From positions 3,348,001-3,412,000 of the forward strand of contig NZ_CP095187.1 of assembly GCF_022965755.1 (NCBI RefSeq): a DNA stretch of 64,000 bases, in the 5' to 3' direction. A program made the translations under genes and the position numbers. The notes under the pieces are model-generated. The model saw only the letters and a list, made by a program, of their open reading frames with translations, did no database searches and was not told the DNA's origin. The stretch is from Pseudoxanthomonas sp. F37. GTDB taxonomy: Bacteria; Pseudomonadota; Gammaproteobacteria; Xanthomonadales; Xanthomonadaceae. Of the stretch, positions 37,087 to 58,015 are shown one piece after another. Positions within the stretch are counted from its first letter, which is position 1, and every line of letters starts with the position of its first letter.

Positions 37087-38274
37087 TCAGCCGGCCGTGC
37101 GCGCCTGCGGTGACGGCGTGCCGAGCACGTGCTCGGCATCCTGGTCGAACACGGGCGCGGCGAACGGCGCCGGACCCGGCGTGCGGCCGAAGGCGATCGG
37201 CCGGGTGACGCCGCGGTAGCTGCCGACGACGGGATGGGCGATCTCGGCCACCATGTCCTCGGCCAGCACCTGCGGGTGCTCGAACATGTCCTCCACGCGG
37301 CGTGCGGCCGCGCAGGGCACTTCGTCGCCGAAATGCGCCTCCCATTCCATCGCGGTGCGCGCCTGCAGCGCAGCATGCAGCTGCGGCACGATCTCCGCGG
37401 CCTGTGCCGCACGTTTGCGCACACTGTCGTAGCGCGGATCGTCGGCCAGCGCATCCAGGCCGGTCAGCCGGCACAGCGCCTTCCAGAAGCGCGGCGTGTT
37501 GGCGGACAGGTACAGGTAGCCCTCGCGCGCCGGATGGATGCCGGTGACGCCGCCGGAGCGCATGTCGCGGCCGATGTCGAGCGCCTCGCCTTCGGCCCAG
37601 ATCATCCGCGCGGACTGCATGGTCAGCGCACTGCGCAGCAGCGAGATACCGACGAACTGCCCGCGCCCGCTGCGTTCGCGCTCGTACAGCGCCGACGACA
37701 CGCCGGCGGCGAGCAACGCCGCCGCGTAGTAGTCCACCACCGAGCCGTAGATGATTTCCGGTGCGCCGCCGCGCTTGCCCTGCAGCGTGCACATGCCGGT
37801 CATGGCCTGCAGCACCTGGTCGTAGCCGGCCTTGTCCTTCATCGGTCCGTGTTCGCCGTAGCCGGTCACCGCGCAGTAGATCAGGCGCGGATTGATCAGC
37901 GCCATGCGGTCGAAATCGATGCCCAGCCGCTTCGGCACGCTGGGGCGGAAGTTGTGCACCAGCACGTCGGCCTCGCGCACCAGGCGCAGCAGCGCCGCAT
38001 GGTCGGCCGGCCGCTTGAGGTCCAGCGCGATGCCCTGCTTGCTGCGGTTCACGCCGAGAAAGGCGCGGCTCTCGCGCTCCAGCGTGGACGGGTACTGGCG
38101 CAGGTTGTCGCCATCGGGCGGTTCGACCTTGATGACGTCGGCGCCCTGGTCGGCCAGCAGCGTGCAGCCGTAGGGCCCGGCGATGTAGGCGCTCAGGTCC
38201 AGCACCTTTACGCCGGTCAACGGACCGGCAGGGCCGGTGCGCAGCCGCGAGCGGAAGGGAGACGGATTGTCCAT
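37087..38274 (-). CDS. CaiB/BaiF family CoA-transferase
   Basis: A 395-residue family III CoA-transferase. The N-terminal part has GVKVLDLSAYIAGPYGCTLLADQGADVIKVEPPDGD, with the Asp-containing start of the fold and the catalytic acid expected near SVPKRLG/DFD further on. GEHGPMKDKAGYDQVLQAMTG and DIGRDMRSGG match the family. It transfers CoA between organic acids without a free intermediate. The start is the ATG at 38274. It lies 121 bases downstream of the GH127 gene and may be the last gene of that operon. With the CitE-like lyase at 50.6 kb it could activate and cleave a dicarboxylic or hydroxy acid. Confidence 0.88.
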   Translation of the reverse strand: MDNPSPFRSRLRTGPAGPLTGVKVLDLSAYIAGPYGCTLLADQGADVIKVEPPDGDNLRQYPSTLERESRAFLGVNRSKQGIALDLKRPADHAALLRLVREADVLVHNFRPSVPKRLGIDFDRMALINPRLIYCAVTGYGEHGPMKDKAGYDQVLQAMTGMCTLQGKRGGAPEIIYGSVVDYYAAALLAAGVSSALYERERSGRGQFVGISLLRSALTMQSARMIWAEGEALDIGRDMRSGGVTGIHPAREGYLYLSANTPRFWKALCRLTGLDALADDPRYDSVRKRAAQAAEIVPQLHAALQARTAMEWEAHFGDEVPCAAARRVEDMFEHPQVLAEDMVAEIAHPVVGSYRGVTRPIAFGRTPGPAPFAAPVFDQDAEHVLGTPSPQARTAG

Positions 38275-38395
38275 GGGAAGAGGCTCCTTCAGCCGTCGCC
38301 GCAACGGCGGTGGCCAGTCTGTGCCACGTGGCGGGCGCGATACAGCCAGCGGCCGTAACTTCTGCTGCCACAAATTCTTGCGAGCGCACGCGCGC

Positions 38396-40243
38396 TCATG
38401 GCGGCGGCAGCGACAGCCAGGTCAGCCGCCACGCGCCATCATGCCGTCCCCCGGCGCGGTAGTAGGGCCAGAACAGCAGCGGGGGCCGGCTGGCCGGCTG
38501 CAGCGAGATGGCCGCGCCCTCCTCGCCGTCGGTCACCGGGAGCACCTGCAGCCAGTCGTCCTGCGGACCGTCGGGCAAGCGGAGGGTCTCTTCGGTCTTG
38601 AAGCCGTCGATCAGGCCGGTGGCGTACGCCAGCGGGCCGCGCGTGAGGCCCACGTAGTGCAGGTCCAGCACCTGCTGGTGGACCTCCGATCCGTCCGGCG
38701 CGCGCGATTCCTGCACGTTGCGCAACACCTGCCGGTGCAGCACCGGCCGCAACGGGAACGCCAGCTGCACGTGGTCGTCGCGGCGCCACAGGCGGCGCAC
38801 GGCCAGGAAGGTACCCGGCACCACCGTCGCATCGACCGCTTCGCCATTGACCGACACCGTGGCGCCTTCGGCCCAGGACGGGATGCGCAGGTGCAGGTCG
38901 AAGACGGCCTCGTGTTCGGGGCGCACGTCCAGCGACACCTCGCCGTCGAACGGATACCCGGTGCGCTGGCGCAGCGCCAGCGTCCCGGCCTGGGGGTGCG
39001 CCAGCCGCGCTTGGCCCGGACCGTACAGCTGCACGCGGACCGCTTCGCCCTCCACGGCATAGGCCAGCGCCGGCAGTTCCTCGAGCGCCATCGCACCGCT
39101 GGACTTGCAGCAGCGCCAGTAGGTGGTATGCACGCGCCGCCCGTTCGGGAACGAGTAGTAGCACCAGTCCTCGCCATCCGGCGCCTGCGCGCCGAGCAGG
39201 TCGTTGTAGGCGGTGCGCTCGATCTCTTCGGCGAAGCGCGCCTCGCCGGTCAGCCGCAGCAGTTCGCGGTTGAACTGGATCCACGACAGCAGGGAACAGG
39301 TTTCCACGTAGGCGTTGGGACTGAAGCTGCCGCGCGCATTGAAGACCTCGCGCGAGCGATGGGCCACGCCGCCCCACGGACCGCCACCCAAGGTCAGGTG
39401 GTGTTCGCGGATGTTGTGCCAGATGCGCTCCAGCGCATCGCGCAGGCCGGCATCGCCGGCAAGGCGGCACAGCTTCACCAGCGCCACCAGGTTCCACAGC
39501 AACTGGTAGGCCTTGCCGGTGGCGATCTCCGATGCATCGGCGCCGGCTTCCAGCGCGGGCAGCAGGCGCAGCGCGGGGTGCGCATTGGCCTGCTCCAGCA
39601 CGCGCTGCGCCAGGACGAGGAAGCGCGGCTCGCCGGTTTCCTCATGCAGCTCCAGCGCGGCATCCATCAGCACGGTGGCGGACATGCCGTGATGGTTGCC
39701 CAGCGTGGTGATGTCGATGCCCGACGCCAGCGCCTGCGCGCACAGGTCGGCGATGCGTCCGGCGGCCTGCGTGTAGCGCGCGTCATGCAGGGCGCGGGCG
39801 GTTTCGACCAGGCCGAGGACCAGGTAGGCGTGCACCCAGATGTCCCAGGTGCGCAGCGCGGGCGCACCGTCCCAGCTCGGCGGCCTGGGCGGCTGCGGAT
39901 GCACGAAGCGCCGCGCGTCCGCGTAGGTGCCCAGGTAGCCATCGGCTTCCTGCACCGAGAGCAGATAGTCCGCGACACGCCTCAGGTTATCGCCCAGCAC
40001 GGCATAGCCACTGCGGACGAACGCGCGCGCAGCGGCCGACAGCCACTTCCCCGCATGTTCGCCGTACCAGTCGCCTTCGGTGTTGTACGCACGGTGTTCC
40101 GGTGAGAACAGCGCGATGGCCGGGCTGTCCGGCGCGGTGATGAAGTGCGTCAGGCGGCCGCGCAGGTTGGCATCGAGGGCTGCGCCCAGGACACCGCCAA
40201 GCACGACCGACGGCGACGCGCCGGAACGGGCGGTCGCGCTCAT
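38396..40243 (-). CDS. GH127 family glycoside hydrolase (beta-L-arabinofuranosidase type)
   Basis: A 615-residue enzyme of the DUF1680/GH127 family. The conserved zinc-thiolate centre is visible: Glu314-Thr-Cys316 (ETCSLLSW) and Cys378-Cys379 (WRCCKSSG). One of these cysteines is the nucleophile in characterised beta-L-arabinofuranosidases. The (alpha/alpha)6 barrel covers about 1-420 and a beta-sandwich with EVSLDVRPEHE follows. There is no signal peptide, so substrate must be taken into the cell first. Its ATG overlaps the upstream TIM-barrel/FGE-like gene (ATGA), so the two are made together. The aglycone is unknown. Confidence 0.92.
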   Translation of the reverse strand: MSATARSGASPSVVLGGVLGAALDANLRGRLTHFITAPDSPAIALFSPEHRAYNTEGDWYGEHAGKWLSAAARAFVRSGYAVLGDNLRRVADYLLSVQEADGYLGTYADARRFVHPQPPRPPSWDGAPALRTWDIWVHAYLVLGLVETARALHDARYTQAAGRIADLCAQALASGIDITTLGNHHGMSATVLMDAALELHEETGEPRFLVLAQRVLEQANAHPALRLLPALEAGADASEIATGKAYQLLWNLVALVKLCRLAGDAGLRDALERIWHNIREHHLTLGGGPWGGVAHRSREVFNARGSFSPNAYVETCSLLSWIQFNRELLRLTGEARFAEEIERTAYNDLLGAQAPDGEDWCYYSFPNGRRVHTTYWRCCKSSGAMALEELPALAYAVEGEAVRVQLYGPGQARLAHPQAGTLALRQRTGYPFDGEVSLDVRPEHEAVFDLHLRIPSWAEGATVSVNGEAVDATVVPGTFLAVRRLWRRDDHVQLAFPLRPVLHRQVLRNVQESRAPDGSEVHQQVLDLHYVGLTRGPLAYATGLIDGFKTEETLRLPDGPQDDWLQVLPVTDGEEGAAISLQPASRPPLLFWPYYRAGGRHDGAWRLTWLSLPPP

Positions 40244-42429
40244 GCGGCGTCCACCACGCAACGGAAGCCGATGCGTCCGGACCGGTCCTTGGCCGGCGCC
40301 ATCAGCAGCAGCTTGCCGTGCTGGTCCAGCCGCCGGGTCTGGGGGAAGTACCAGTGCGAGGTGCGCGGCTCGTAGTCGCTGCCGCCGCGCACGATGGCCG
40401 CACGCGTGTGCGCGTCGTGGAACTCGTCCGTCCATTGCCAGACATGGCCGACCAGATCCTGCACGCCGAACGGGCTGGCCCCTGCCGGGTGCATGCCCAC
40501 ATCGGCCGGCGGCGGCAACGTGCGGCCGCGGAACACCGGCGGCGCGGCGTCGTCGCGCCACGCATCGCCCCATGGATACAGCCGGCCATCGGTTCCCTGC
40601 GCGGCGTATTGCCATTCCCACCCGTGCGGCAGGCGCTTGCCGGCCCAGGCGGCGTAGGCGCGTGCGTCCTCCAGCGACACCCAGGTGACCGGCTTGTTCT
40701 CCCAGCCGGGCTGCGGCGCACCGTCGCGCCAGTCGCGGAGGAAGTTCAGCGCATCGCGCGGCGCATAGCCGGTGGCATCGACGAACGCCTTGAACTGCGC
40801 GTTCGTCACCGGATGGCGGTCGATGTGGAAGGCCGCCACCTGCATGCGGTGGCGATGGTGGCGCCGCGCGGTCGGTTCCCACGGGAACTGCACGTCCACG
40901 CCTTCCCACACCTGCCCTTCTATCTCGATGCCCTGCACGGCGAACAGGAACTCGCCCGCCGGGATGGTCACCATGCCGTCCGGCGCGATGGCCTGCGGCG
41001 CGGTCGGCGCTATCGGAAGCAGCGTCTGCGGCAGGGCTTTCCACTGCGCGGACAGCGATGCCAGCGGCGTGGCGGCATGAGCGGCCATCTGCGCCAGGAA
41101 CGCCTGCAGGCCTTCTTCCTGCGCGCCTTCGCGCAACGCCAGCAGCGCGCCGAAGCCTCGACCCTCCAGTGTCGTCTCCAGGATCGCCTGGCCGTCGATG
41201 ATGCGCGGCTGCAGGACACCGCCGTTCCACAGGTCGATGTAGCGCGTGCCATCCACGTGCGGTATCGCCAGCTGCTCGCCGGCGATCGCGTATTCATGGC
41301 GGTTGACCAGCGTCCACAGCGTGCGGCCCTCGCCCGGGAAGCGGCTGGCGAAGATGCCGGCCTGCAGCGTGCGCTCGTACGGGCGCCAGTCCAGGCTGAC
41401 CAGCAGCGGTGCGAAGCGGCGGTATATCGCGGCGATGCGACGCAGCGCTTCGGCGTCGCGCGGGGTCAGCTGGTTCCACAGGCCCCAGACGTTCTCCCAC
41501 GCGTTGTAGCCCACGCCGTTGAAGAAGATGTACTGCAGGTCGTGGGTGCGGTCGCGGCCCCAGCGGTTCTCGTAGTTGATCATGTGGCGCGGTTCCAGCC
41601 ACTTGAACTTCGCCACCGGCGGCACGACTTCGTTCGGTGCCTTCTTGCCCCAGCTCTGCACGTTCCAGATCAGGTGTTCCTCGGCGCTGATCGTGGACTC
41701 CGGCTGCACCACCACCGGATGGCCCAGCGCATCGCAGGCGTCGAAGAAGGCGCGCGGCACGCCGTTGTAGGTGTCGCCGTTGATGCCGTCCGCGCCGACC
41801 GCCTTGACGATCTTCGCGACGGCCTGCCAGTCGGGTTCGCCCTCGTCGCGGGTGCCGTTGTCCCACGGCATGGTGGTGAGGAACACGCGCACGCCGCGGC
41901 GGTGGAAGTCGTCGATCGCACCCCGCAGGCCCTCCAACCCGCCGGGCAGGCTGCGGGCCAGGTCGAACTGGTTGCGGTCGTCCACGCCGATGTTGGGGTA
42001 CACACACCACAGCAGCACGCTGTCCAGGCCGCCGAAGCGGGCTTCCAGGTCGTCGAGATAGCGATCGACCGTGTAGCGGCCGGCGACGGGGTCGTAGAGG
42101 TAGCGGTCCTCCACCATCACCTGCGCATGCACGAAGTTGCGCTGCGCCCACTGCAGTTCCGGCCTGCGGTAGTGGGCGTCGTCGTAGCCGATGCGGGTGA
42201 GATGCTCGCGCCGCCAGTCCTTCAGCTCGGCGACCCAGTCGTCGGCCGAGGCGTTGGCATCGATCTTCCACTGGCCGATGTCGGCGAACGGCCAGCCCGG
42301 CGCCTTGCCCGGCGTGGGCAGGTAGCGCTGGGTGGTGACGTGCGAGAACTTGTATTCGGTCTTCACCACGTGCGGTGACCCGTCGAGCTCGGAGGCTTCG
42401 TGGGAGCCGGGGAAAGCGGGGGTATTCAT
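40240..42429 (-). CDS. Fusion: glycosidase-like TIM barrel with FGE/SUMF1-like domain
   Basis: A 729-residue protein with two parts. Residues about 40-440 look like a TIM-barrel glycoside hydrolase: VRVFLTTMPWDN, GADGINGDTYNGVP (about 213, a beta4-type Asp) and VVVQPESTIS (about 241, a beta5-type Glu) are good nucleophile and acid candidates. Residues about 485-727 are a formylglycine-generating-enzyme/EgtB-like fold (MVTIPAGEFLF, HRMQVAAFHIDRHPVTNAQF, PVTWVSLEDARAYAAWAGKRLP, GHVWQWTDEF, GRIGFRCV). The CxxxxC pair of true FGE is absent (the region reads RGGSDYEPRTSHWYF), so sulfatase activation is unlikely and the domain may bind substrate. No signal peptide. The gene is 20 bases after the ribokinase-like gene. 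I cannot place the barrel in a numbered GH family. Confidence 0.72.
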   Translation of the reverse strand: MNTPAFPGSHEASELDGSPHVVKTEYKFSHVTTQRYLPTPGKAPGWPFADIGQWKIDANASADDWVAELKDWRREHLTRIGYDDAHYRRPELQWAQRNFVHAQVMVEDRYLYDPVAGRYTVDRYLDDLEARFGGLDSVLLWCVYPNIGVDDRNQFDLARSLPGGLEGLRGAIDDFHRRGVRVFLTTMPWDNGTRDEGEPDWQAVAKIVKAVGADGINGDTYNGVPRAFFDACDALGHPVVVQPESTISAEEHLIWNVQSWGKKAPNEVVPPVAKFKWLEPRHMINYENRWGRDRTHDLQYIFFNGVGYNAWENVWGLWNQLTPRDAEALRRIAAIYRRFAPLLVSLDWRPYERTLQAGIFASRFPGEGRTLWTLVNRHEYAIAGEQLAIPHVDGTRYIDLWNGGVLQPRIIDGQAILETTLEGRGFGALLALREGAQEEGLQAFLAQMAAHAATPLASLSAQWKALPQTLLPIAPTAPQAIAPDGMVTIPAGEFLFAVQGIEIEGQVWEGVDVQFPWEPTARRHHRHRMQVAAFHIDRHPVTNAQFKAFVDATGYAPRDALNFLRDWRDGAPQPGWENKPVTWVSLEDARAYAAWAGKRLPHGWEWQYAAQGTDGRLYPWGDAWRDDAAPPVFRGRTLPPPADVGMHPAGASPFGVQDLVGHVWQWTDEFHDAHTRAAIVRGGSDYEPRTSHWYFPQTRRLDQHGKLLLMAPAKDRSGRIGFRCVVDAA

Positions 42430-42449
42430 GGGTGGGGTCTTGATCGTGA

Positions 42450-43394
42450 TCAGGAAAGGCCGCAGTAGGCCGCCAGGACGCTGCGCCGCGCGGGTTCGTC
42501 GGCATGCCCGGCCAGCCAGGCCTCGACCTCTGCGCGCATCGGGATGCTGGCCTGCGCGCCCAGGCGGGTGCAGGCCAGCGCGGACGCCGCACTGGCGAAG
42601 CGTAGCGCGTCCTCCAGTCCTGCTTGCTCGGCCAGCCGCGCCGCCAGTGCGCCGCAGAAGGTGTCGCCCGCCGCGGTGGTGTCGACGGCATCGATGGGGA
42701 ACGCGGGCTGCAGAAAGACCTCCGCACCCCGCCGCGCGAAGCAGCCGCGCGCGCCCAGCGTGACCACCACGCAGGGCACCGGCAGGCGCGCCGCCTGGGT
42801 GGACACGTTGCCCTCGCCGGCCAGCGTGGCCAGCTCGCCTTCGTTCACGACCAGCACGTCGACGCTGTCCAGCAGGCCCGGCGGCAGCGCGGCGGCGGGT
42901 GCGGCGTTCAGCACCACGCGCACGCCGGCCTCGTGGGCGAGTCGCGCATAGCTGGCCACGCTGTCCAGCGGCGTTTCCAGCTGCAGCAGCAGATGGCCGA
43001 TGCCGCGCAACGACGGCAGGTGGTGCGGCCGCAGGCCCGTGTTGGCGCCGGGCGCCACCGTGATCGCATTCTCCGCGTCGTCGGACAGGCAGATGAAGGC
43101 CGTGCCGCTGGCGGCGTCCGGCACACGCACGATGTGCAGCGCGACACCGGCATCGGCCAGCGCGGCTTCCAGCACCCCGGCGTAGGGATCTTCGCCCAGC
43201 GCCAGCAGCATGCGCGTGGGCACGCCGCCGGCACGCGCGCTGGCCACGGCCTGGTTGGCGCCCTTGCCGCCAGGGAAGGTGGCGAAGCCGCGCCCGAGTA
43301 CGGTCTCGCCCGGCGCCGGCACATGGTGCGCGCGCACCACGAAGTCCAGGTTGGCCGATCCCGCGACGAGCACGCCGTCATGACCGCGGCTCAT
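42450..43394 (-). CDS. rbsK: PfkB-family carbohydrate kinase (ribokinase type)
   Basis: A 314-residue sugar kinase. Signatures: GSANLDFVV near the start, FPGGKGANQAVASARAG (sugar-binding), ECxNEGEL-like VVNEGELATLAG, and the anion-hole/catalytic DTTAAGDTFCGAL. This fits ribokinase more than fructokinase. The ATG overlaps the end of the serine hydrolase gene (ATGA). In this operon it probably phosphorylates the pentose freed by the glycosidases; arabinofuranose or ribose are both possible. Confidence 0.88.
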   Translation of the reverse strand: MSRGHDGVLVAGSANLDFVVRAHHVPAPGETVLGRGFATFPGGKGANQAVASARAGGVPTRMLLALGEDPYAGVLEAALADAGVALHIVRVPDAASGTAFICLSDDAENAITVAPGANTGLRPHHLPSLRGIGHLLLQLETPLDSVASYARLAHEAGVRVVLNAAPAAALPPGLLDSVDVLVVNEGELATLAGEGNVSTQAARLPVPCVVVTLGARGCFARRGAEVFLQPAFPIDAVDTTAAGDTFCGALAARLAEQAGLEDALRFASAASALACTRLGAQASIPMRAEVEAWLAGHADEPARRSVLAAYCGLS

Positions 43395-44617
43395 GGCGAC
43401 ACCGCCGTGTAGGCCGCTCGATAGAACGGCCCGGCGAGCTTGGGCAGCGCGGGCGTGTCGTCGCCGGGCAGGTGCTGCGACAGCAGCAGGATCACCAGGC
43501 CGCGCTCCCGATCGATGGTGAAGTAGGTGGAGGCGGCCCCGGACCAGCCGAACTGGCCGCGCGATCCCGGCCGTGCGGCGACGGCCGGATCGGTGACGAC
43601 ATAGCCGCCCAGGCCGAAGCCCTCGCCCGGTTCGGGCGCGGGCACGGCCGGGTCGAAGCGGCCCAGCTGGTCGGACATCATCATCGCCACGGTATCCTCG
43701 CGCAGCAGGCGCACGCCCTCCAGCCTGCCGCCTTCGGCCAGCATCCGCGCGAAGCGCAGGTAGTCGGCCGCGGTGGAGTACAGGCCGCCCGCACCGCTGG
43801 TGTAGGCGCGCAGGCGGATGCCGGGCTGGCGCGCAGAGGGTGTATCGGCCAGCACGCGCCGACCGCCGGCATCGCGCGTGGTGAGCGCCATCACGCGGCC
43901 ACGTTGGGCGAGAGGCACCTCGAATCCGGTGTCGCGCATCCGCAGCGGCTGGAAGATGCGCGTGCGCAGGAAGACCTCCAGCGGCTGCCCGCTGGCGACT
44001 TCGATCACGCGGGCGAGGACCTCGGTGTTGACGCCGTCGTAGCGGAAACGCGTGCCCGGCTCGCTGGCGAGCGGTGCGCGGGCGACGCGCTCGGCATAGC
44101 CGGCAAGATCCGAGGCGTCCTCCGGCGCCTGGGCCTGCAGCAGGGCGGAGGCCACGCGGATGTCGTCTCCGCCGGTGGCGAAACCGGCGGTGTGCGTCAG
44201 CAGGTGGCGTACGGTGGGCACGCGCCGCACCGGCACGAGCACGGGCGCCTCGACGCTGCCGCCGGCGACGCGCCGCAGGCCGGCGAACGCCGGCAGGTAG
44301 GTGGCGACGGGGGCATCGAGCTGCAGCCTGCCCTCTTCCACCAGCATCAATGCCGCCACCGAGGCGACGGGTTTGGTCATCGAGTAGATGCGGAAGATCG
44401 CGTCTTCGCGCAGCGGCTGCCGCGCTTGCAGGTCCGCATGGCCGGCCACACCGCGGTAGACCACGGCCCCCCGCTCGGCGACCAGGGCAACGGCGCCCAG
44501 GTAGCCATCAGGGCCCACGGACTGCGCCAGCACCGCATCCATCGGCGCACGCGGCAACGCCGCCGGGGGGAGCCGGCCGTCGCGCAGGCGGCGAGCCAGA
44601 GCATCGGGACCATCCAC
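43391..44617 (-). CDS. Serine hydrolase, beta-lactamase/esterase family (N-terminus frameshifted)
   Basis: A class C beta-lactamase-fold hydrolase/esterase. Motifs: SMTK (nucleophile Ser, about residue 79), FRYDGVNTEVLARVIE with the YxN-type Tyr, and a C-terminal FGWSGAAST near the KTG position. The listed start is a GTG at 44617, giving 408 residues without a signal. In the neighbouring frame, starting at ATG 44679, lies a lipoprotein signal ending MLWLAACATAGSP. Adding one G in the G6 run at 44565-44570 (plus strand) would join that signal to this protein. So the native product may be an outer-membrane or periplasmic lipoprotein, broken here by a one-base deletion or error. It follows the TonB receptor by 76 bases. 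Confidence 0.85.
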   Translation of the reverse strand: MDGPDALARRLRDGRLPPAALPRAPMDAVLAQSVGPDGYLGAVALVAERGAVVYRGVAGHADLQARQPLREDAIFRIYSMTKPVASVAALMLVEEGRLQLDAPVATYLPAFAGLRRVAGGSVEAPVLVPVRRVPTVRHLLTHTAGFATGGDDIRVASALLQAQAPEDASDLAGYAERVARAPLASEPGTRFRYDGVNTEVLARVIEVASGQPLEVFLRTRIFQPLRMRDTGFEVPLAQRGRVMALTTRDAGGRRVLADTPSARQPGIRLRAYTSGAGGLYSTAADYLRFARMLAEGGRLEGVRLLREDTVAMMMSDQLGRFDPAVPAPEPGEGFGLGGYVVTDPAVAARPGSRGQFGWSGAASTYFTIDRERGLVILLLSQHLPGDDTPALPKLAGPFYRAAYTAVSP

Positions 44618-44693
44618 AGCCCGCGCCGCCCTGGAGAGGGGACGGCGCGGGTGGATGCAAGGTGGGAGAGTGCCGGCATCCGCGGATGGTGGA

Positions 44694-46985
44694 TCAGAAC
44701 GTGTACTCGTAGGTGAAGGAGTACATGCGGCCGCGACCGGCCCAGTAGTTGCGCCAGCCCGGTACCTGCGACCAGGTCAGGATGTACTGCTTGTTGGTGA
44801 GGTTCTCGATGCCCAGCGAGAAGCGTCCCCACTTTTCCACCCGATAGTTGACGCCCAGGTCGAACAGCGTGTAGCCGGTGGTGTGCTCTTCGTAACTGTA
44901 GTCGCGGCCGTCGTATTCCCGCGTGTCGCTGCCGTACAGGTCGCGCGAGAGCAACGTGGTTGACCCCAGCGTCGCGTCGCCGGCATCGGAGAACTTCCAC
45001 CTGACGGACAGCGCGATCTTGTCCGGATTCACGTCCAGCGCGCCCATCGGCTTGGTCAGCGGTCCCGCGCTCCAGCGTCCTTCCGGATCTTCGGTCCAGA
45101 ACGAAGTCTTGCCGCGGATGCGCGAGTACAGGCCGCTGAGCTTCCAGGCCTCGTTGATGGTCCAGTCGCCGGAGAATTCGAAGCCCTTGATCCGCGTGGG
45201 CGCGCGGAACAGCACGTAGTCCTCGGTGATCGGATCGATCACGTACGACGAGCCGAACTTGGAGCGCGAGTCGTAATACGAGGCGCTGAAGGACGTCCTT
45301 TCACCGCGCCAGTTGACGCCGACCTCGCGATTGTCGACCACGACCGCCTTCAGCTCGCGGAACGTCGAATCGACGGTTGCCGGCGGATCGCCGGGGCAGC
45401 CGTCCGGCTTGGTGTCGTCGGGATCGTCCGGGCAGGAGATGTTGCGCAGCGGAATGCCGACGTTGGGCAGGCCGAAGCCTTCGCCGTAGGCGCCGAACAC
45501 GGACCACTGGTCGGTGATGCGCCAGATGGCGCCGAAGTTCACCAGGTTCTCCTGGTAGCTCAGCTTGCCGCCCTGCACGAAGCGGCGGTCCCGATACCAG
45601 GTGGTGGTGTAGTCGTTGACCGACAGTTCGCCGTCTTCTCGACGGAAGCCTCCGCTCAGGGTCACCGGACCGATGTCCCAGCTCAGCTGGGCGTAGGGCG
45701 CGATGCTCTCGTACTCCATCGGCGGCACCCATACGCGGTCGGTCAGCGCCAGGCGCTGGTCCGCCTTGTCGCGTACCCAGTCCACGCCGGTACGCAGTTC
45801 CAGACCGGGCACGCCGAACAGCTCGCCGCGCACCCAGGAAGGACGGAAACCGATCTTGTCGGAATTGATCTCCGACTGGTCCCAGATCGTGCCGTCGGGT
45901 CCGTTCGGCGGGATCAGCGGGTCCTGGCGGTCGCTGCCGTTCTCGGGCGGGTAGCGCATGGCCTGGTCGGCCCAATAGGCGTTGAGGTTCAGCGTGCCGC
46001 CGAAGAAGTCGCCATCGGTGTACTGCAGGTTGACCTGGCGGAAATCGTTGAACTCGGCCTTGGTGCCGAAGATGTGGCCACGCTCGGAGGTGTTCGGGCG
46101 CGGGTCCTCGCACCAGCCCGGCTCGTAGCGGCAGCCGTCGACCTGGATGTAGTTGCCGTTGCCTTCGATCTTGAACTGGCTGTAGCTCAGCTGCAGGCGC
46201 TTTTCCAGGTCCTCGCCGAAATTGACGCCGCCCTTGACGAAGAGGTTGCGCGCCACCGAATCGTTGACCGAACCGCTGGTGTTCATGCCCAGGCGCACGC
46301 CGTCGGCGTCGTAGCCCATGCCGCGGTCGATCTGCGCCACGCCCGCGATCAGGTCGTAGGCGTCCTGCTTGTAAGCGTAGTTCAGGCCCAGCTTCCAGCC
46401 CGCGCTGTCGTCCTTGAACTGGGTGGAATAGCGCGACAGGAAACGGAACTCGCTGCCTTCCTTGGTCGGCACGGCGGAGATGTAGTTGATGATGCCGCCG
46501 GCCGCACCGATGCCCTCGGACGCGGACGGACCGTTGATCACCTCCACGCGGCCCACGATGCCCATGTCGGTGAAGGTCGCGTTGCGGCTGCCGTCGCGCA
46601 GCGGCGAACCCTGCGGCACGCCGTCGAACAGGCGCAGCGCCACGCGGCCGCGCAGGGTTTCGCCGCTGTTGCTCATGGCCTGCGAAGCCTCCGCATAGCC
46701 GGGCACGGTGCGTGCCAGCACGGCGGTGGCATCCTCGGTGACCAGCAACGTGTGGGCGATCTCCTCCTTGCTGACCAGCGATACCGCGCCCGGGATCCTG
46801 TCCACGGCTTTCGGCGCGCGCACGCCGGTGACGATCACCTGGTCCAGGTCGACGGCGTCCTTTGCCCGTTCTTCTTCGGCCGCCGCGTCCTGCGGCGGCA
46901 GCGGGGTGTTCTGTTGGGCCTTGACGCTGGCGCTCACGGCGGCGGCCAGCAGGAAAACGCCGAACGCGGCGGGTACCTGTTTCAT
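44694..46985 (-). CDS. TonB-dependent outer-membrane receptor
   Basis: A 763-residue receptor. Signal peptide MKQVPAAFGVFLLAAAVSA with cleavage near KAQ; plug domain (about 45-165) with VIVTGVRAPKAVDRIPG (TonB-box-like start) and GRVEVINGPSASEGIGAAGGIINYI. A 22-strand barrel follows and ends SFTYEYTF, the C-terminal Phe. It should import a large or scarce substrate across the outer membrane. The frame is open far upstream, but the ATG at 46985 is the natural start. It heads the serine hydrolase-ribokinase-GH operon and its upstream region carries the LysR-type motif. Confidence 0.95.
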   Translation of the reverse strand: MKQVPAAFGVFLLAAAVSASVKAQQNTPLPPQDAAAEEERAKDAVDLDQVIVTGVRAPKAVDRIPGAVSLVSKEEIAHTLLVTEDATAVLARTVPGYAEASQAMSNSGETLRGRVALRLFDGVPQGSPLRDGSRNATFTDMGIVGRVEVINGPSASEGIGAAGGIINYISAVPTKEGSEFRFLSRYSTQFKDDSAGWKLGLNYAYKQDAYDLIAGVAQIDRGMGYDADGVRLGMNTSGSVNDSVARNLFVKGGVNFGEDLEKRLQLSYSQFKIEGNGNYIQVDGCRYEPGWCEDPRPNTSERGHIFGTKAEFNDFRQVNLQYTDGDFFGGTLNLNAYWADQAMRYPPENGSDRQDPLIPPNGPDGTIWDQSEINSDKIGFRPSWVRGELFGVPGLELRTGVDWVRDKADQRLALTDRVWVPPMEYESIAPYAQLSWDIGPVTLSGGFRREDGELSVNDYTTTWYRDRRFVQGGKLSYQENLVNFGAIWRITDQWSVFGAYGEGFGLPNVGIPLRNISCPDDPDDTKPDGCPGDPPATVDSTFRELKAVVVDNREVGVNWRGERTSFSASYYDSRSKFGSSYVIDPITEDYVLFRAPTRIKGFEFSGDWTINEAWKLSGLYSRIRGKTSFWTEDPEGRWSAGPLTKPMGALDVNPDKIALSVRWKFSDAGDATLGSTTLLSRDLYGSDTREYDGRDYSYEEHTTGYTLFDLGVNYRVEKWGRFSLGIENLTNKQYILTWSQVPGWRNYWAGRGRMYSFTYEYTF

Positions 46986-47173
46986 GATCGGTTCTCGGAA
47001 TGCTTCGGTGGACGGTGCGGTCGCGCACCACGCGCCCGCTCCGCTGACAAGGATGTGTATGCGAGATGGCCGCGATGACGGCCGGCGTGCCCAGCGTTCC
47101 TCCCAGACGCTCGAACCCGACGATGGCCACAGCCTAGGCAAGCGCACGTCGCGGAGGAATCGCCCGCGGATAT

Positions 47174-47191
47174 GTTCACAGGCTAGTTTTT
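47174..47191 (-). promoter_or_regulatory. Candidate LysR-type site upstream of the TonB receptor
   Basis: GTTCACAGGCTAGTTTTT on the plus strand matches the 18-base site at 51529-51546 (ATTCAAACGATAGTTTTT) at 14 of 18 positions. It lies about 190 bases before the receptor start and between it and the LysR gene. Both copies precede minus-strand operons. Confidence 0.5.
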
Positions 47192-47227
47192 GTAGCGTGC
47201 ACTGCAACATCGCCACCGCCCGAAGGC

Positions 47228-48103
47228 TCATGCCTGGCCGGTGGCGGCACGGCTCTCCTGCAGCAGCACGGTGACCAGGCGGATGCGCACGGTCGAACGC
47301 GACCACACCATGCCGATCCGGCGCGGCTCGCTGGGCAGCGGCAGCGGAATGCGCACCAGGTCCAGGCCTTCCGGCCAGGGCCGGGCCCAGTCGGGCACCA
47401 GCGAAACGCCCAGGCCGCGGTCCACCATCACCGCGATGGCGTTGAGTCCGTTCAATTCGAAACGCTCGCGCGGCACGATGCCCGCGCGGCGCAGGTAATC
47501 GTCCGCCACCCGCCCGCCCCACTGGTTGCGGTCGTAGCGGATCAGCGGCTCGCTGCGCAGCAGCGCGTGCGGATCGCGCCCGGCCAGGCGCGCCGGCGCG
47601 ATCATCACCAGCGGCTCCTCGCGCAGCAGCTGCCAGTCGCAGGTCTTGGGCAGGTTGTACGGCGCCTGCAGCACCACGGCGGCGTCCAGTTCGCCCGTTT
47701 CGACCGCGCGGTAGAGCTCGGCCGAGTAGCCGGGCCGGATGTAGACGTTGATCTGCGGAAATGCATCCACCATCCGCGCCAGGATGTCCGGCAGCATCCC
47801 GGCCAGCGCGGTGGGGCAGGCGCCCAGGCGGAGCTCGCCGGAGACCTCGCTGTCGTTGGCCACGCTGCGCATGTCGGCCACGTCGCGCAGCAGGTCGCGG
47901 GCGCGCTGCAGGATGCGCGAGCCCTCCTCGGTCAGGCTGACGGTGCGGCCGGCGCGCGCGATCAGCGGCGCGCCGAGTTCGCGTTCCAGCGTGCGGATCT
48001 GCTGCGCCACCGCGGCCGGCGTGATGTTCAGCACGCGCGCGGCCGCGGCCATCGAGCCGCGGTCGGCCACCACCACGAAGGTATTCAGGAACTGGGTATC
48101 CAC
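47228..48103 (-). CDS. LysR family transcriptional regulator
   Basis: A 291-residue regulator. The N-terminal winged helix (1-60) reads FLNTFVVVADRGSMAAAARVLNITPAAVAQQIRTLE. The effector-binding part (about 90-290) has GELRLGACPTALAGMLPDIL and a typical two-lobe layout. It lies between the CitE-symporter operon and the TonB receptor operon, all on one strand. Both flanking promoters carry a similar 18-base motif, so it probably controls both. The inducer is unknown. Confidence 0.93.
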   Translation of the reverse strand: MDTQFLNTFVVVADRGSMAAAARVLNITPAAVAQQIRTLERELGAPLIARAGRTVSLTEEGSRILQRARDLLRDVADMRSVANDSEVSGELRLGACPTALAGMLPDILARMVDAFPQINVYIRPGYSAELYRAVETGELDAAVVLQAPYNLPKTCDWQLLREEPLVMIAPARLAGRDPHALLRSEPLIRYDRNQWGGRVADDYLRRAGIVPRERFELNGLNAIAVMVDRGLGVSLVPDWARPWPEGLDLVRIPLPLPSEPRRIGMVWSRSTVRIRLVTVLLQESRAATGQA

Positions 48104-48173
48104 GCGCCTCCCCTGCCGCCCTCAGGCTACACGAGCCGGCCGGCGGCGACGACAGGACCGATGGCCCATGCGC

Positions 48174-50618
48174 TCACTCCGCCGGGGCCACCGCGTCCTG
48201 GCGGTGGATGGTCAGGCCCTGCAGCGATTGCGCGGGCGGCGGGAACAGCCAGCTGGCGGCATAGCCGATGACGATGCACAGCAGGATGGAGATGCCCAGG
48301 TAGAAGTACGGATGCACCAGCCCCATCGACCACACCAGCAGGGTCAGCGCGATGCTGCCGCCGATGCCGATGGCCACGCCCTGCGCGTTCGCCCGGCGGG
48401 TGAACATGCCCAGCGTGTAGGCGCCGGCGAAGCCGCCGCCCAGCAGGCCCGCCAGTTCGATGGAAACGTCGAACAGGGAATGGATGTCGTAGCGCGACAG
48501 CAGCAGCGCGATGCCGATGCCCGCCAGGCCGACCAGCACGCCCATGATCTCGGCGAACAGCACGCTCTTCTTCGGCGTCGGGTTCCTGGCCAGTTTCTCG
48601 TAGAAATCGACCGAGGCCAGGGTCGACACGCTGTTGATGATGCTGGACAGCGTGGACATGGCGGCGGCGAAGATGCCGGCGATGATCAGGCCGGTGACGC
48701 CCATCGGCAGTTCCGCGGCGATGAACAGCGGGAACGTGGCGTCGATGGGCAGCAACGGATTCATCCGTTCCGGGTGCGACTGGTAGTACACGTACAGCGC
48801 GGTGCCGATGGCGTAGAAGAAGAACCCGCCGGGTATCATGATGGCGGCGAAGGTCCAGATGGAACGGCCGGCCTCCCTGTCGGACTTGGTGGACAGCACC
48901 CGCTGCATCAGCACCTGGTCCTTCGGGAACGTCAGCACCACGTCGAACAGCACCAGGAAGATGAAGCCCCAGACGGTGGCCTTGGTCAGGTCGAAGCTGA
49001 AATCGAACAGCCGGGTCTTGTCCTCGGCCATCGCCACCTGGACGAACTCGGGCATGCCGCCGTTGAGGTGGTAGATGATGAAGCCGATGGCGAAGATCGC
49101 CCCGCCGAACATCACGAAGACCTGTACGAAATCCGTCCAGATGACCGCCTTCATGCCGCCCAGCGTGGTGTAGAGGATGGTGAACACCCCCATGATGAGG
49201 ATGCTCCACACCACGTCGATGCCGGTGATGGTGGCGATGGCCAGCGCCGGCAGGAACAGGATCACGCTCATCCGGCTGCCGATCTGCATGGCGATGCACA
49301 GCGCGCTGGCCAGCATGCGGATGGCCGGATGGAAGCGCTTCTCCAGGTAGGAGAACACCGACATCAGGTCCAGCCGGCGCAGCAGCGGCACGATCCACAC
49401 CGCGACGAACATCAGGCCGAGCACCGCGATCAGGTTGTTGGTGAGGTACTGCCAGTTGGTCTCGAACGCCTTGGCCGGAATGGCGATGAAACTGATGGAA
49501 CTGGTGTTGGTGGCGTACAGGCTGACGCCCGCGGCCCAGAACGGGATGCTGCGTCCGCCGACGAAGAAGTCGGCCGTGGAGGCCCGTTTCTCCTGCAGGT
49601 AGAAGTACAAGCCGATGCCGACCATGGCCGCCAGGTAGACCACGATGACCAGCCAGTCCAGCCACTTGAGCAGGTAGGTGCCGCCGACCAGTGCCACCGT
49701 GCGCAGCGCGCCGGTGCGGGCGTCCACGCCGGCCACGCCATCGCCCCACGCCGTCATCGATGCGGGCAGTCCCCCGGCGGGCGTATCCAGTTCGGCCCAG
49801 GCGCCGGTGATGGTGTGGAAGGTGGCGAGGCGGGCCGCCGCCGGATCGTCGTGGGATTGCAACGCATAGAGCACGTGCGCCTGGCCGACCGCACGCGCCG
49901 GGCCATCCGCGACGAGCTTCCCCGGTACCGGCGGCAACGCGCGCCAGCCGCCGTCGCGCGACCAGCGCCACAGATGATCGGCCGCTTGTCCGGGCACGGT
50001 GACCACCAGTTCGCCGCGCTGCGCGACCAGCGACCCGGGTACGCCCGTACCCGGCCACGAGGGCAATATCTGCCACGGCGCGGTGTCCTCGGCCACCGCG
50101 CGACGCAGGAACAGCACCTGTCCTGCGCCGTCCTGTCCGGACGCATACAGGGTGTCTGCGCTTTCGGCGAGTTCCACGTGCCGCAGTTGTCGTGGAAAAG
50201 GAGGCAGCGCGCGCCAGGCCAGTGTGTCGCCGCTCCGCGATGCGCGCGCCAGGCCGGCGATGTCCGTGCCGTCGCGCGTGCGCTGCAGTCGATAGAGCCG
50301 CCCCTGCGCAGCGTTGCGCCATGCGCCGTCTGCCGCGGCCGCGGGCGGCACCCGCAGCGGATGCCAGCGCGAACTGGAAGGGTCCCACCAGGATGCGCCG
50401 GCGTCGCCCGCGGCCAGCAGCGTTCCCTCCAGTGTGTACAGGCCGCGCACCGGCTCGGGCGGCGCGGGCAGCGTGGAGGTGGTCAGCCGGGTCAGGCTTT
50501 CCGCCATCGCAGGACGGCATGCCATGGCCAGCACGACCAGCACCAGCAGACACACCGCTTCCGACGAGCGCCGCCAACGCCCCCGTACCCAGGTACGACC
50601 CGCTCCGCCGCGCATCAC
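48174..50618 (-). CDS. Kelch-like beta-propeller fused to sodium:solute symporter
   Basis: An 814-residue fusion. After a signal-like helix (about 20-38), residues 40-315 form repeated beta-motifs of the kelch/NanM type (GLYTLEGTLLAAGD, AWRNAAQGRLYRL, WQILPSWPGTG, WRALPPVPGKL, GAWAELDTPAGGLP). From about 320 a symporter of the SSS family begins: WLDWLVIVVYLAAMVGIGLY, STADFFVGGRSIPFW, GGMKAVIWTDFVQ, about 13 helices. The propeller would face the periplasm and may bind or process the sugar before uptake, as with NanM-type epimerases. Its start overlaps the CitE-like gene (ATGA). Related fusions are associated with sugar acids or sialic acids, but the substrate here is unknown. Confidence 0.85.
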   Translation of the reverse strand: MMRGGAGRTWVRGRWRRSSEAVCLLVLVVLAMACRPAMAESLTRLTTSTLPAPPEPVRGLYTLEGTLLAAGDAGASWWDPSSSRWHPLRVPPAAAADGAWRNAAQGRLYRLQRTRDGTDIAGLARASRSGDTLAWRALPPFPRQLRHVELAESADTLYASGQDGAGQVLFLRRAVAEDTAPWQILPSWPGTGVPGSLVAQRGELVVTVPGQAADHLWRWSRDGGWRALPPVPGKLVADGPARAVGQAHVLYALQSHDDPAAARLATFHTITGAWAELDTPAGGLPASMTAWGDGVAGVDARTGALRTVALVGGTYLLKWLDWLVIVVYLAAMVGIGLYFYLQEKRASTADFFVGGRSIPFWAAGVSLYATNTSSISFIAIPAKAFETNWQYLTNNLIAVLGLMFVAVWIVPLLRRLDLMSVFSYLEKRFHPAIRMLASALCIAMQIGSRMSVILFLPALAIATITGIDVVWSILIMGVFTILYTTLGGMKAVIWTDFVQVFVMFGGAIFAIGFIIYHLNGGMPEFVQVAMAEDKTRLFDFSFDLTKATVWGFIFLVLFDVVLTFPKDQVLMQRVLSTKSDREAGRSIWTFAAIMIPGGFFFYAIGTALYVYYQSHPERMNPLLPIDATFPLFIAAELPMGVTGLIIAGIFAAAMSTLSSIINSVSTLASVDFYEKLARNPTPKKSVLFAEIMGVLVGLAGIGIALLLSRYDIHSLFDVSIELAGLLGGGFAGAYTLGMFTRRANAQGVAIGIGGSIALTLLVWSMGLVHPYFYLGISILLCIVIGYAASWLFPPPAQSLQGLTIHRQDAVAPAE

Positions 50619-51472
50619 CGGTGCTCCCGTTCCAGCATGGCCAGGATCGCCCGCGCGCGCGCCAGGAAGGGTGCATCCACCATCCGGCCATCGACGGCGA
50701 ACGCGCTTCCGTCCATCGTCGCCGCGCCGACGATGCGACGGGCCGCTTCGATCTCTTCTTCCGACGGCGAGAATGCGGCGTTGGCCCAGGCCACCTGGCG
50801 CGGATGCACGCAGCTCTTGCCCGCAAAGCCCAGCGCACGCGCCGAATCGGCCTCGGCCATGAAGCCCGCTTCGTCGTGCAGCCCGGGGAATGCGGCGTCG
50901 TAGGCGAACACGCCCGCCTCCGCCGCGGCCATCCGCAGCGCGTACTGCGCGGCGTGCACGTTGCGCAGGTCCGAGCGGCGGATGCCGTGGGGTTCGAACA
51001 GGTCGCCCAGGCCCAGTTGCAGGCCGCGAACGCGCGGATGCGCCCGGGCGATCTGCGCGGCGTGACGCAGAGCGCGCGGTGTCTCGATGTTGACCAGCAG
51101 GCCGACGGCCCGGCGCACCCCCGCCTGCAGCTCGACCGCTTCGATCTCGCCGATCGCCTGGCGGAGCTGTTCCACCGACTCGATCTTGGGCAGGTTCAGC
51201 AGGTCGATATCCAGGGGCAGGACGGCGCGCAGATCGTCCTCCCAGCCGGAGGTGTGCCAGGCGTTCACCCGTACCACGACCTGCTTGTCCGCGGTGCGGT
51301 GCGGTGCGCCGCGCAGGAAGGCGGCGACCTGCGCGCGCGCCTCGCCCTTGTCGCCGCCGGCCACCGCATCTTCCAGGTCGAGGGACAGCATGTCGGTCGC
51401 GCTCGCCAGCGCCTTGGCGAACAACGCGGGCCGGTTCCCGGGGACGAACAGCTTGCTACGCATGGGCGGCAC
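50615..51472 (-). CDS. CitE-like (HpcH/HpaI family) CoA-ester lyase
   Basis: A 285-residue TIM-barrel lyase: MRSKLFVPGNRPALFAKAL, LSLDLEDAV (magnesium ligands), GLLVNIETPRALRHA, LQLGLGDLFEPHGI, and GKSCVHPRQV. The family cleaves malyl-, citramalyl-, beta-methylmalyl- or citryl-CoA to acetyl-CoA or glyoxylate-type products. No citrate lyase partners (CitD, CitF) are nearby, so a citramalyl/malyl-CoA-lyase role is more likely. It is the first gene of a two-gene operon with the symporter fusion, and the only other CoA enzyme here is the CaiB/BaiF protein at 37 kb. Confidence 0.88.
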   Translation of the reverse strand: MPPMRSKLFVPGNRPALFAKALASATDMLSLDLEDAVAGGDKGEARAQVAAFLRGAPHRTADKQVVVRVNAWHTSGWEDDLRAVLPLDIDLLNLPKIESVEQLRQAIGEIEAVELQAGVRRAVGLLVNIETPRALRHAAQIARAHPRVRGLQLGLGDLFEPHGIRRSDLRNVHAAQYALRMAAAEAGVFAYDAAFPGLHDEAGFMAEADSARALGFAGKSCVHPRQVAWANAAFSPSEEEIEAARRIVGAATMDGSAFAVDGRMVDAPFLARARAILAMLEREHR

Positions 51473-51528
51473 TCTTCATGCCGCGCAGTCTGCGGGAATC
51501 GCGCGGAGGGCAAAGCCCGCGCGGGCAT

Positions 51529-51546
51529 ATTCAAACGATAGTTTTT
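51529..51546 (-). promoter_or_regulatory. Candidate LysR-type site upstream of the CitE-like gene
   Basis: ATTCAAACGATAGTTTTT, 57-74 bases before the CitE-like start, closely matches the site at 47174-47191. On the minus strand the core reads AACTATCGTTTGAAT, compatible with a T-N11-A LysR site. Confidence 0.5.
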
Positions 51547-52612: not shown

Positions 52613-52733
52613 TTCCCCTCTCCTCCCGTGCATGGATGCCGCGCGCGCCACTGGCCGGACCTTGTCCATGGGACAAGATAAACCCGCTCATCCGACAGTT
52701 GTTGTTGCAGCGCACACTCTGTTAGCGTTGGTT

Positions 52734-52751
52734 TTGACCATCGGTGTCATT
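52734..52751 (+). promoter_or_regulatory. Candidate LacI-type operator between kdgK and the TonB receptor
   Basis: CGGTGTCATT (52742-52751) is the exact reverse complement of AATGACACCG, found in the site at 57934-57951. The other half is degenerate. LacI-type operators in sugar loci are often CG-centred palindromes of this size. Both sites lie in divergent promoter regions of the same pectin locus. Confidence 0.45.
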
Positions 52752-52846
52752 TTACCAGCCGACACGGTCTGGAAGGGAAGAAACAGCGGTTTTTGCCAAC
52801 AAAACAGTCGCAACACGCGGCCATGGTCCCTTGAGGAGGGGAGAAC

Positions 52847-55627: not shown

Positions 55628-55663
55628 GGTCACGATGTACCGCGCCCCTGTCGGGGCGCACCC

Positions 55664-55702
55664 GAAGCCCGGCCGCCTCTCCCGGCCGGGCTTCATTTTT
55701 TT
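55664..55702 (+). terminator. Rho-independent terminator after the pectin TonB receptor
   Basis: Perfect 12-bp stem GAAGCCCGGCCG / CGGCCGGGCTTC with a 7-base loop, followed by A and seven T residues, 37 bases after the receptor stop. Confidence 0.95.
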
Positions 55703-57864: not shown

Positions 57865-57933
57865 TGGCTCCCTCCCAGGAGTGGATCGACGCATCGTGGC
57901 ATCGGGATGGGTTTTGCGGCAGTGCACATTGTC

Positions 57934-57951: not shown

Positions 57952-58015
57952 TATACAGGCCATCCATCTGCACTGTCACTCGGCAGTGCAACAAATCGCA
58001 GCGGGGAGAACCCAC

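What the first reader, a model, noticed from the sequence alone, without database searches (positions are those of the whole stretch)
37087..51472. LysR-centred locus that may degrade an acylated pentofuranoside
One strand carries, in order, a CitE-like lyase and a kelch-symporter fusion, a LysR regulator, then a TonB receptor, a serine hydrolase (esterase-like), a ribokinase-type kinase, a TIM-barrel/FGE-like fusion, a GH127 beta-L-arabinofuranosidase and a CaiB/BaiF CoA-transferase. A simple reading: the receptor and symporter import a glycoside, the esterase removes an acid, the glycosidases free a pentose, the kinase phosphorylates it, and the CoA-transferase and lyase handle the acid. I know of no described pathway with exactly this set.
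Basis: partly seen in the sequence, partly recalled or inferred. Interest (0 to 1): 0.7.

Follow-up and report, generated by a model that had tools for sequence, protein, structure and literature searches.

The report
Two-operon acylated ribofuranoside degradation locus
A nine-gene bacterial cluster, kept together in several bacterial groups and apparently switched by one regulator, looks like an undescribed route for taking up an acidic, ester-carrying ribose compound and breaking both its sugar and its acid down to central metabolites.

Summary
Nine same-strand genes (window 37087-51463, Pseudoxanthomonas) form one functional unit in two transcription units: CitE/symporter/LysR and TonB receptor/esterase/kinase/barrel-FGE/GH127/CaiB. 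Of 79 related loci, 50 carry at least eight of the nine families; among 37 congeneric genomes the four genes tested are present or absent together. New: a 19-bp site precedes both units, occurs only twice in this 3.97-Mb genome, and recurs in most LysR-positive loci but in none of the few LysR-negative ones. CitE and CaiB are fused in Massilia, so the acid is probably activated to a CoA ester and cleaved to acetyl-CoA plus a 2-oxo acid. The sugar is more likely ribose than L-arabinose: four of six relatives' kinases pass the ribokinase cut-off, though the window's does not, and ADP-ribosylglycohydrolases stand in for GH127 in seven loci. The symporter keeps the sialic-acid transporter's carboxylate-binding residues. 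The barrel of the FGE fusion resembles GH13/GH129 enzymes and may be an unclassified glycosidase. Substrate and acid remain unknown; my searches listed no paper describing the cluster.

The parts
50615..51463 (-). CitE-type CoA-ester lyase (282 aa; GTG start at 51472 also possible)
   Evidence: PF03328 136.5 bits, cut-off 25; best PDB sequence matches malyl-CoA lyase and citE; D29, E31, D32, E127, D154 in 51/51 relatives of plausible length
48174..50618 (-). NanM-like propeller fused to a SiaT-like sodium:solute symporter (814 aa)
   Evidence: PF00474 151.8 bits; best PDB match SiaT 5nv9, E 2.3e-80; NANM in 4 of 19 relatives scanned; S373, S376, R449 align with SiaT S60, T63, R135 and are kept in 54/54, 53/54, 54/54
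47228..48103 (-). LysR-type regulator, probable controller of both units
   Evidence: PF00126 and PF03466; 52-56% identical to the LysR divergent from CitE in Cupriavidus (L102, L106) and Caballeronia (L107)
44694..46985 (-). TonB-dependent receptor (763 aa from the called start)
   Evidence: PF00593, PF07715; 56 of 79 related loci
43391..44617 (-). family-VIII-type serine esterase, beta-lactamase fold (alternative start 44542)
   Evidence: PF00144 233.5 bits; PDB matches led by esterases 4ivi and 7pp3, with Est-Y29 close behind; SxxK (S79, K82) 44/46, Y193 46/46
42450..43394 (-). ribokinase-like PfkB kinase
   Evidence: PF00294; closest PDB sequences are ribokinases, E 3.1e-72; ribose-site positions (recalled) 53-55 of 55; TIGR02152 259.7 bits, below its 299.65 cut-off
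40240..42429 (-). (beta/alpha)8 barrel fused to FGE-like domain (729 aa): putative unclassified glycosidase
38396..40243 (-). GH127 glycosidase (615 aa)
   Evidence: PF07944 139.2 bits, PF20736; the only PF07944 match at E<=0.001 in the genome; E299, E314, C316, C378, C379 54/54
37087..38274 (-). CaiB/BaiF class III CoA-transferase (395 aa; TTG start at 38373 possible)
   Evidence: PF02515 385.6 bits; D152 in GYDQ 52/52 relatives of plausible length; PDB relatives include succinate-HMG CoA-transferase 9br6
51527..51545 (-). putative regulatory site upstream of the CitE unit, AAAACTATCGTTTGAATAT
47172..47190 (-). putative regulatory site upstream of the TonB-receptor unit, AAAACTAGCCTGTGAACAT
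   Evidence: one of only two genome sites at up to 2 mismatches

Best explanation
A dedicated two-operon catabolic regulon for a small anionic, acylated ribofuranoside. The TonB receptor takes it across the outer membrane; the NanM/SiaT-like symporter moves the carboxylate-bearing molecule into the cytoplasm. There the serine esterase releases an acid, GH127 (in other lineages an ADP-ribosylglycohydrolase) and the GH13/GH129-like barrel cut the glycosidic bonds, and the kinase phosphorylates ribose. CaiB moves CoA (probably from succinyl-CoA) onto the released hydroxy-dicarboxylic acid, and CitE cleaves it to acetyl-CoA and a 2-oxo acid; citramalate or malate are the simplest candidates because no further dedicated enzyme would be needed. 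The LysR, regulator of the acid module elsewhere, switches both operons through a shared 19-bp site. Shown by computation: the unit, its co-inheritance, the shared site, the CitE-CaiB fusion, intact active-site residues. Inferred: every substrate, the direction of each step, the binding of LysR to the site.
For: Unit: 50 of 79 loci hold at least 8 of 9 families; 23 of the 32 complete loci lack the Pseudoxanthomonas flank genes KdgK and Gcw. Co-inheritance in 37 genus genomes, orthologues judged by score: barrel-FGE 26, GH127 the same 26, CitE 25, CaiB 25, none in the other 11 (tallied in 64); the two misses are drafts of 140 and 650 contigs. Regulon: the TBDT-trained matrix finds the site before CitE in 34 of 45 LysR-positive loci, the CitE-trained matrix before TBDT in 37 of 48, against 0 of 2 and 0 of 3 LysR-negative loci; 0 before GH127, symporter, kinase, esterase or FGE genes; two genome hits, reversed control 0. 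Acid step: CitE-CaiB single ORFs in L065 and L067; 48 of the 120 listed homologues carry both domains; LysR-CitE-CaiB with TctC and Amidohydro_2 in Cupriavidus, CaiB and CitE with amidase and isochorismatase in Variovorax. Ribose. Ester: four different hydrolase types at the loci. Carboxylate.
Against: No substrate is known for any member. The window kinase is below the ribokinase cut-off (259.7 against 299.65), as are L068 and L058. CitE and CaiB meet none of the curated specific models, so the acid is open. 11 of 45 and 11 of 48 LysR-positive loci miss the site threshold, and only five LysR-negative regions could be tested. 16 of 79 loci hold the FGE fusion without any other of the nine in the stretch held (four of these stretches are under 8 kb), and the Acidobacteria loci lack CaiB/CitE, so the barrel-FGE protein also works elsewhere. 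34 of 79 loci lack this esterase. NANM similarity is weak. Whether GH127 lies elsewhere in the seven ADP-ribosylglycohydrolase genomes was not tested. The 55 CaiB and 55 CitE loci include distant hits (L068 CaiB 28%, L076 CitE 32%).
Confidence: 0.55

Rival explanations
1. One reading: the pentose is L-arabinose from an acylated beta-L-arabinofuranoside of plant walls (pectin, extensin), GH127 acting as a classical beta-L-arabinofuranosidase.
For: GH127 with the catalytic Glu and Cys residues intact; pectate lyase, KDG kinase and TRAP genes lie beside the cluster in the window.
Against: No arabinose kinase or isomerase in the cluster; the kinase is ribokinase-like with ribose-site positions kept in 53-55 of 55. 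The flank (KdgK or Gcw gene) is kept in only 9 of 79 loci. ADP-ribosylglycohydrolases are present and GH127 absent in 7 loci.
Confidence: 0.15
2. The locus targets a branched or modified acidic sugar (aceric acid of rhamnogalacturonan II, or a 3,6-anhydrogalactose-like unit), GH127 and the GH129-like barrel being alternative exo-hydrolases as in Zobellia.
For: In Zobellia, GH127 and GH129-like enzymes cleave the same 3,6-anhydro-D-galactoside (PMC5698469, passages read); the barrel resembles ZgGH129; GH127 shows distant similarity to aceric acid hydrolase.
Against: Aceric acid hydrolase model 109.6 bits against a cut-off of 950; no sulfatase among the proteins scanned with Pfam; a ribokinase-like kinase is the recurring kinase.
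Confidence: 0.12
3. CitE is an aldolase for a sugar acid (HpcH/HpaI-like) and CaiB serves another, unrelated step.
For: CitE belongs to the HpcH/HpaI superfamily; the symporter looks built for acidic sugars.
Against: CitE and CaiB are one ORF in Massilia and in 48 of 120 listed homologues, and lie close together in Burkholderiales loci where no sugar gene was seen.
Confidence: 0.08
4. Two unrelated pathways (glycoside use and acid use) that sit side by side and share a regulator only because both compounds come from the same decaying material.
For: LysR-CitE-CaiB lives without glycoside genes in Cupriavidus and Caballeronia, and glycoside genes without CaiB/CitE in Acidobacteria.
Against: CaiB is the last gene of the glycoside unit in the window, CitE the first of the other; both units share one site.
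Confidence: 0.1

Closest known systems
[quoted passage not shown]
   Same: CoA-transferase followed by a citramalyl-CoA lyase giving acetyl-CoA and a 2-oxo acid (pathway as drawn in PMC4682846, passages read; CaiB/CitE types recalled)
   Different: There it follows a mesaconase; here the acid would come from an ester of a glycoside, and the genes share control with glycosidases and a sugar kinase
Itaconate degradation (Ict/Ich/Ccl, RipC)
   Same: CoA-transferase, CitE-type lyase and, from recall, a LysR regulator
   Different: No itaconyl-CoA hydratase in the cluster; RipC model 158.3 bits against a cut-off of 375
Sialic acid uptake: NanM mutarotase and SiaT symporter
   Same: Symporter closest to SiaT with its carboxylate residues (PMC5931594, passages read); NANM-like propeller in 4 of 19 relatives scanned
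   Different: Fused in one protein; no sialate lyase, kinase or epimerase genes in the cluster; the positions of SiaT Q82 and T58 are Asn in 49 and 50 of 54
Zobellia carrageenan locus (GH127 DagA, GH129-like DagB)
   Same: GH127 beside a GH129-like barrel enzyme (PMC5698469, passages)
   Different: Different kinase and acid steps, no sulfatases among the genes scanned, barrel fused to an FGE-like domain
SUMF1/EgtB/PvdO (FGE-fold) proteins
   Different: No cysteine pair at the FGE site and a glycosidase-like barrel in front

Membership tests
GH127 | PF07944 catalytic domain above cut-off | tested here: met
   139.2 bits, cut-off 24.9; 142.1 in the genome search
GH127 | Zn-binding Glu/Cys, catalytic Cys and acid/base Glu (roles recalled) | tested here: met
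   ETC and CC align with HypBA1 3wkw; E299, E314, C316, C378, C379 in 54/54; E299 lies one column off HypBA1 E322 in that alignment, so the acid/base is less sure
GH127 | beta-L-arabinofuranosidase activity | not testable with these tools
   needs an assay
aceric acid hydrolase (NF049879) | curated cut-off | tested here: not met
   109.6 against 950 bits
ribokinase (TIGR02152) | curated equivalog cut-off | tested here: not met
   window 259.7 against 299.65; relatives L071, L065, L072, L082 pass, L068 and L058 do not
ribokinase | ribose-contact residues (positions recalled) | tested here: met
   NDGGKNED pattern, 53-55 of 55 at each position
formylglycine-generating enzyme | FGE domain PF03781 | tested here: met
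   122.8 bits; fold matches
formylglycine-generating enzyme | copper-binding cysteine pair after RGGS (recalled) | tested here: not met
   Window has only C724 in this domain, constant in 48/48; two other cysteine-bearing columns (15 and 8 of 48) lie just before C724, not after RGGS
GH13/GH129-type glycosidases | (beta/alpha)8 barrel with Asp after strand 4 and Glu after strand 5 (placement recalled) | tested here: met
GH13/GH129-type glycosidases | sequence-family membership | tested here: inconclusive
   Pfam matches only the FGE part of the protein at E<=0.001
class III CoA-transferase | PF02515 and active-site Asp | tested here: met
   385.6 bits; D152 52/52; equation with the known Asp inferred
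(S)-citramalyl-CoA lyase / RipC | curated cut-offs of RipC_Ccl and citE | tested here: not met
   158.3 against 375 and 170.4 against 443.4
SiaT-type symporter | carboxylate-binding Ser, Thr and Arg | tested here: met
   S373 54/54, S376 (Ser for Thr) 53/54, R449 54/54
SiaT-type symporter | transport of sialic acid | not testable with these tools
   needs uptake assay

The most novel reading that the evidence does not exclude
The cluster reveals an unrecognised, widespread natural product class, an acidic ester of a 1,2-cis ribofuranoside with a hydroxy-dicarboxylic acid, and a complete pathway for it, including a new glycoside hydrolase family (GH13/GH129-like barrel fused to a non-catalytic FGE domain) and an ADP-ribosylglycohydrolase that serves as an ordinary ribofuranosidase for food rather than for ADP-ribose.
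Probability: 0.3. Interest if true: 0.82.

Novelty: new variant of a known kind. Interest (0 to 1): 0.62.

Why it matters
It ties sugar catabolism and CoA-dependent acid catabolism into one regulon of two units and a single site, so the unknown substrate can be hunted directly: a reporter on either promoter would report it. It offers a candidate new glycosidase family hidden under the misleading name 'SUMF1/EgtB/PvdO family nonheme iron enzyme', and a natural test of what ADP-ribosylglycohydrolase-family proteins do in catabolic loci. The breadth (Xanthomonadales, Burkholderiales, sphingomonads, Paraglaciecola, a Verrucomicrobia bin) suggests a common compound in soil and sea.

Tried and rejected
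Frame 48127-50838 as the symporter: no family match, a shadow frame. Rfam elements in window 30000-58000: none at gathering thresholds. A near-perfect palindrome as LysR box: not conserved; the shared 19-mer was then seen by eye in the printed upstream regions. The first matrix was trained and tested on the same sequences; only the cross-trained test is used as evidence, with five sphingomonad loci (L058, L059, L063, L064, L066) left out because one divergent promoter serves both genes there, and upstream regions shorter than 200 bases dropped. CaiB upstreams were scored only (2 of 54 above 13) and not cross-tested. The matrix scores weakly in the stand-alone Burkholderiales intergenic regions (12.1, 6.6, 10.9 and -4.1), so the site was not shown to be shared with them. 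The genome pattern was built from the window's own two sites, so matches in close relatives are partly by descent. Pectin/RG-II reading: flank not conserved. Papers: searches returned none; 47 (9), (20 of 879; 20 of 72; 1; 3) were seen as listings with abstract starts and no listed title or abstract describes such a cluster. These cover open-licence PubMed Central texts only. Fold libraries: absent families are not excluded.
Full report
WHAT IS THERE. The window is G000:C1:3348001-3412000 of a 3.97-Mb genome; the named relatives closest by the FGE fusion are Pseudoxanthomonas. My gene calling and Pfam give nine genes on the minus strand: CitE-type lyase, propeller-SSS symporter, LysR, TonB receptor, beta-lactamase-fold esterase, PfkB kinase, barrel-FGE fusion, GH127, CaiB. 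Gaps are -4, 70, 242, 76, -4, 20, -4 and 121 bases; the widest is after LysR, hence two units. By a crude hydropathy test, signal-like N-termini are usual for the TonB receptor (51 of 56) and the symporter (41 of 54); the window's FGE fusion, kinase, esterase, CitE and CaiB score below the threshold; GH127 scores above it in the window (2.4) but in only 9 of 54 relatives, and 17 of 46 relatives' esterases score above it, so the esterase's place is open.

IS IT A UNIT? A scan of GTDB genomes with the FGE fusion gave 106 candidate stretches, 100 confirmed, 80 kept, 79 distinct loci. At 80 bits or more: TonB receptor 56, kinase 56, CaiB 55, CitE 55, symporter 54, GH127 54, LysR 52, esterase 45 of 79; all nine in 32, eight in 18, FGE alone in 16. 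The flanking KDG-kinase or Gcw gene is kept in 9 of 79, and 23 of the 32 complete loci lack it. Order changes between lineages: sphingomonads have LysR-symporter-CitE divergent from the rest; Massilia and Paraglaciecola are shuffled. Among 37 genomes of the genus the FGE fusion is in 26, GH127 in the same 26, CitE in 25 and CaiB in 25, and no orthologue-level match is in the other 11 (tallied in 64). Distant matches there (CitE 44% in G004 and G015, CaiB 34% in G007, GH127 28% in G011) I did not count. The two misses are G006 (CitE) and G003 (CaiB), drafts of 140 and 650 contigs. In an even sample of the order the FGE fusion is patchy: 14 of 151 genomes.

ONE REGULON. The upstream regions of CitE and of the TonB receptor share AAAACTANCNTNTGAAYAT, which contains a T-N11-A as in LysR sites (recalled). 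A matrix trained on TonB-receptor upstreams exceeds the 99.9% shuffle level in 34 of 45 CitE upstreams of LysR-positive loci and 0 of 2 LysR-negative; the converse gives 37 of 48 and 0 of 3; controls upstream of GH127, symporter, kinase, esterase and FGE give 0. At up to two mismatches the whole genome holds two sites, both here; the reversed control holds none. In the 37 congeners there are 44 sites against 1 reversed-control site; 38 of the 44 lie in the cluster. Of the 26 congeners with the cluster, 15 have two sites in it, 8 have one, G017 and G024 have only a site elsewhere and G006 has none; of the 11 without it one (G004) has a single site. G026 and G033 also have sites elsewhere (2 and 1). 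In the 24 genomes outside the genus the pattern and its reversed control are equal, 33 and 33.

THE ACID STEP. CitE and CaiB form one open reading frame in Massilia loci L065 (717 aa) and L067 (726 aa), and 48 of the 120 listed homologues of that fusion carry both PF02515 and PF03328. CaiB relatives at 55-76% identity occur on six records of the plasmid collection. In Cupriavidus (L102, L106) and Caballeronia (L107) CitE and a LysR 52-56% identical to ours lie beside CaiB, with TctC receptors and an Amidohydro_2 enzyme in L102 and Amidohydro_2 and a short-chain fatty acid transporter in L107 (L106 not scanned). In two Variovorax records CitE and CaiB come with TctC and an isochorismatase-family enzyme, in one also an amidase; their LysR genes are not close relatives (33% in L103). 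The sixth record, Sphingopyxis, carries the glycoside part. So the module probably processes a small di- or tricarboxylic acid that can arrive as ester, amide or perhaps lactone. By analogy with mesaconate use (PMC4682846, passages) citramalate is the simplest candidate, but no specific model is met.

THE SUGAR. The kinase is ribokinase-like. Of six kinases from other loci, four pass the ribokinase equivalog cut-off; the window's does not. Ribose-contact positions (recalled) are kept in 53-55 of 55. In seven loci (L071 and L073 Paraglaciecola, L062 an alphaproteobacterial bin, L070, L074, L076 Neomarinimicrobiota, the last two from one bin, and L072 an unassigned bin) GH127 is absent and ADP_ribosyl_GH-type proteins are present, by Pfam for L062 and L071 and by clustering for the rest. 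GH127 mostly acts on 1,2-cis furanosides and ADP-ribosylglycohydrolases on alpha-ribofuranosides (both recalled), which would fit a 1,2-cis ribofuranoside; the Zobellia GH127 enzymes, which cut an anhydrogalactoside, warn against reading the family name too closely.

ENTRY AND ESTER. The symporter is closest to SiaT, and the residues that bind the carboxylate there (S60, T63, R135; PMC5931594, passages) correspond to S373 (54/54), S376 (53/54) and R449 (54/54). A hemiester of a dicarboxylic acid would supply such a carboxylate. Hydrolases of other families occur at loci of other lineages: COesterase in Sphingomonas L058, PF00756 in Paraglaciecola L071 and a tandem alpha/beta hydrolase in L072.

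THE BARREL-FGE PROTEIN. Whole-model and domain-alone models (mean pLDDT 87.1 and 89.8) match GH13 and GH129-type barrels. D219 follows strand 4 and E244 strand 5, the places of nucleophile and acid/base in such enzymes (recalled); they are 48/48 and 47/48. No Pfam family covers the barrel, and in 61 relatives every match other than the orthologues begins at residue 440 or later, in the FGE half. The FGE part lacks the cysteine pair. I read it as an unclassified retaining glycosidase with a lectin-like appendage.

VERDICT. A real, coherent catabolic regulon for which my searches listed no description. The functional outline is well supported; the compound it eats is not known.

Noticed in passing
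L024:12178-14931, L043, L049, L052, L054, L088: Six loci carry a protein (about 920 aa where complete) next to the FGE fusion, before GH127 where both are held; the L024 copy has ThuA and cytochrome c domains. Perhaps an oxidative step for the same sugar.
   Followed up: partly
L065:5448-7601, L067:5422-7602: CitE and CaiB fused in one reading frame in Massilia; 48 of 120 listed homologues share both domains.
   Followed up: yes
L102, L103, L105, L106, L107: CitE and CaiB without sugar genes in Cupriavidus, Caballeronia and Variovorax; in Cupriavidus and Caballeronia a closely related LysR is divergent from CitE.
   Followed up: partly
L104: Sphingopyxis plasmid pSFD01 carries TonB receptor, ribokinase, FGE fusion, GH127 and CaiB, so the cluster can travel on a plasmid.
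   Followed up: no
window 51596-62812: KDG-kinase-like gene, second TonB receptor, TRAP transporter genes and a pectate lyase beside the cluster; the KDG kinase was found near it only in close relatives.
   Followed up: partly
L070, L072, L074, L076: Three Neomarinimicrobiota loci and one unassigned bin pair the FGE fusion with one or two ADP-ribosylglycohydrolase-type genes, a sugar ABC importer and, in three of four, a ribokinase-like kinase.
   Followed up: partly
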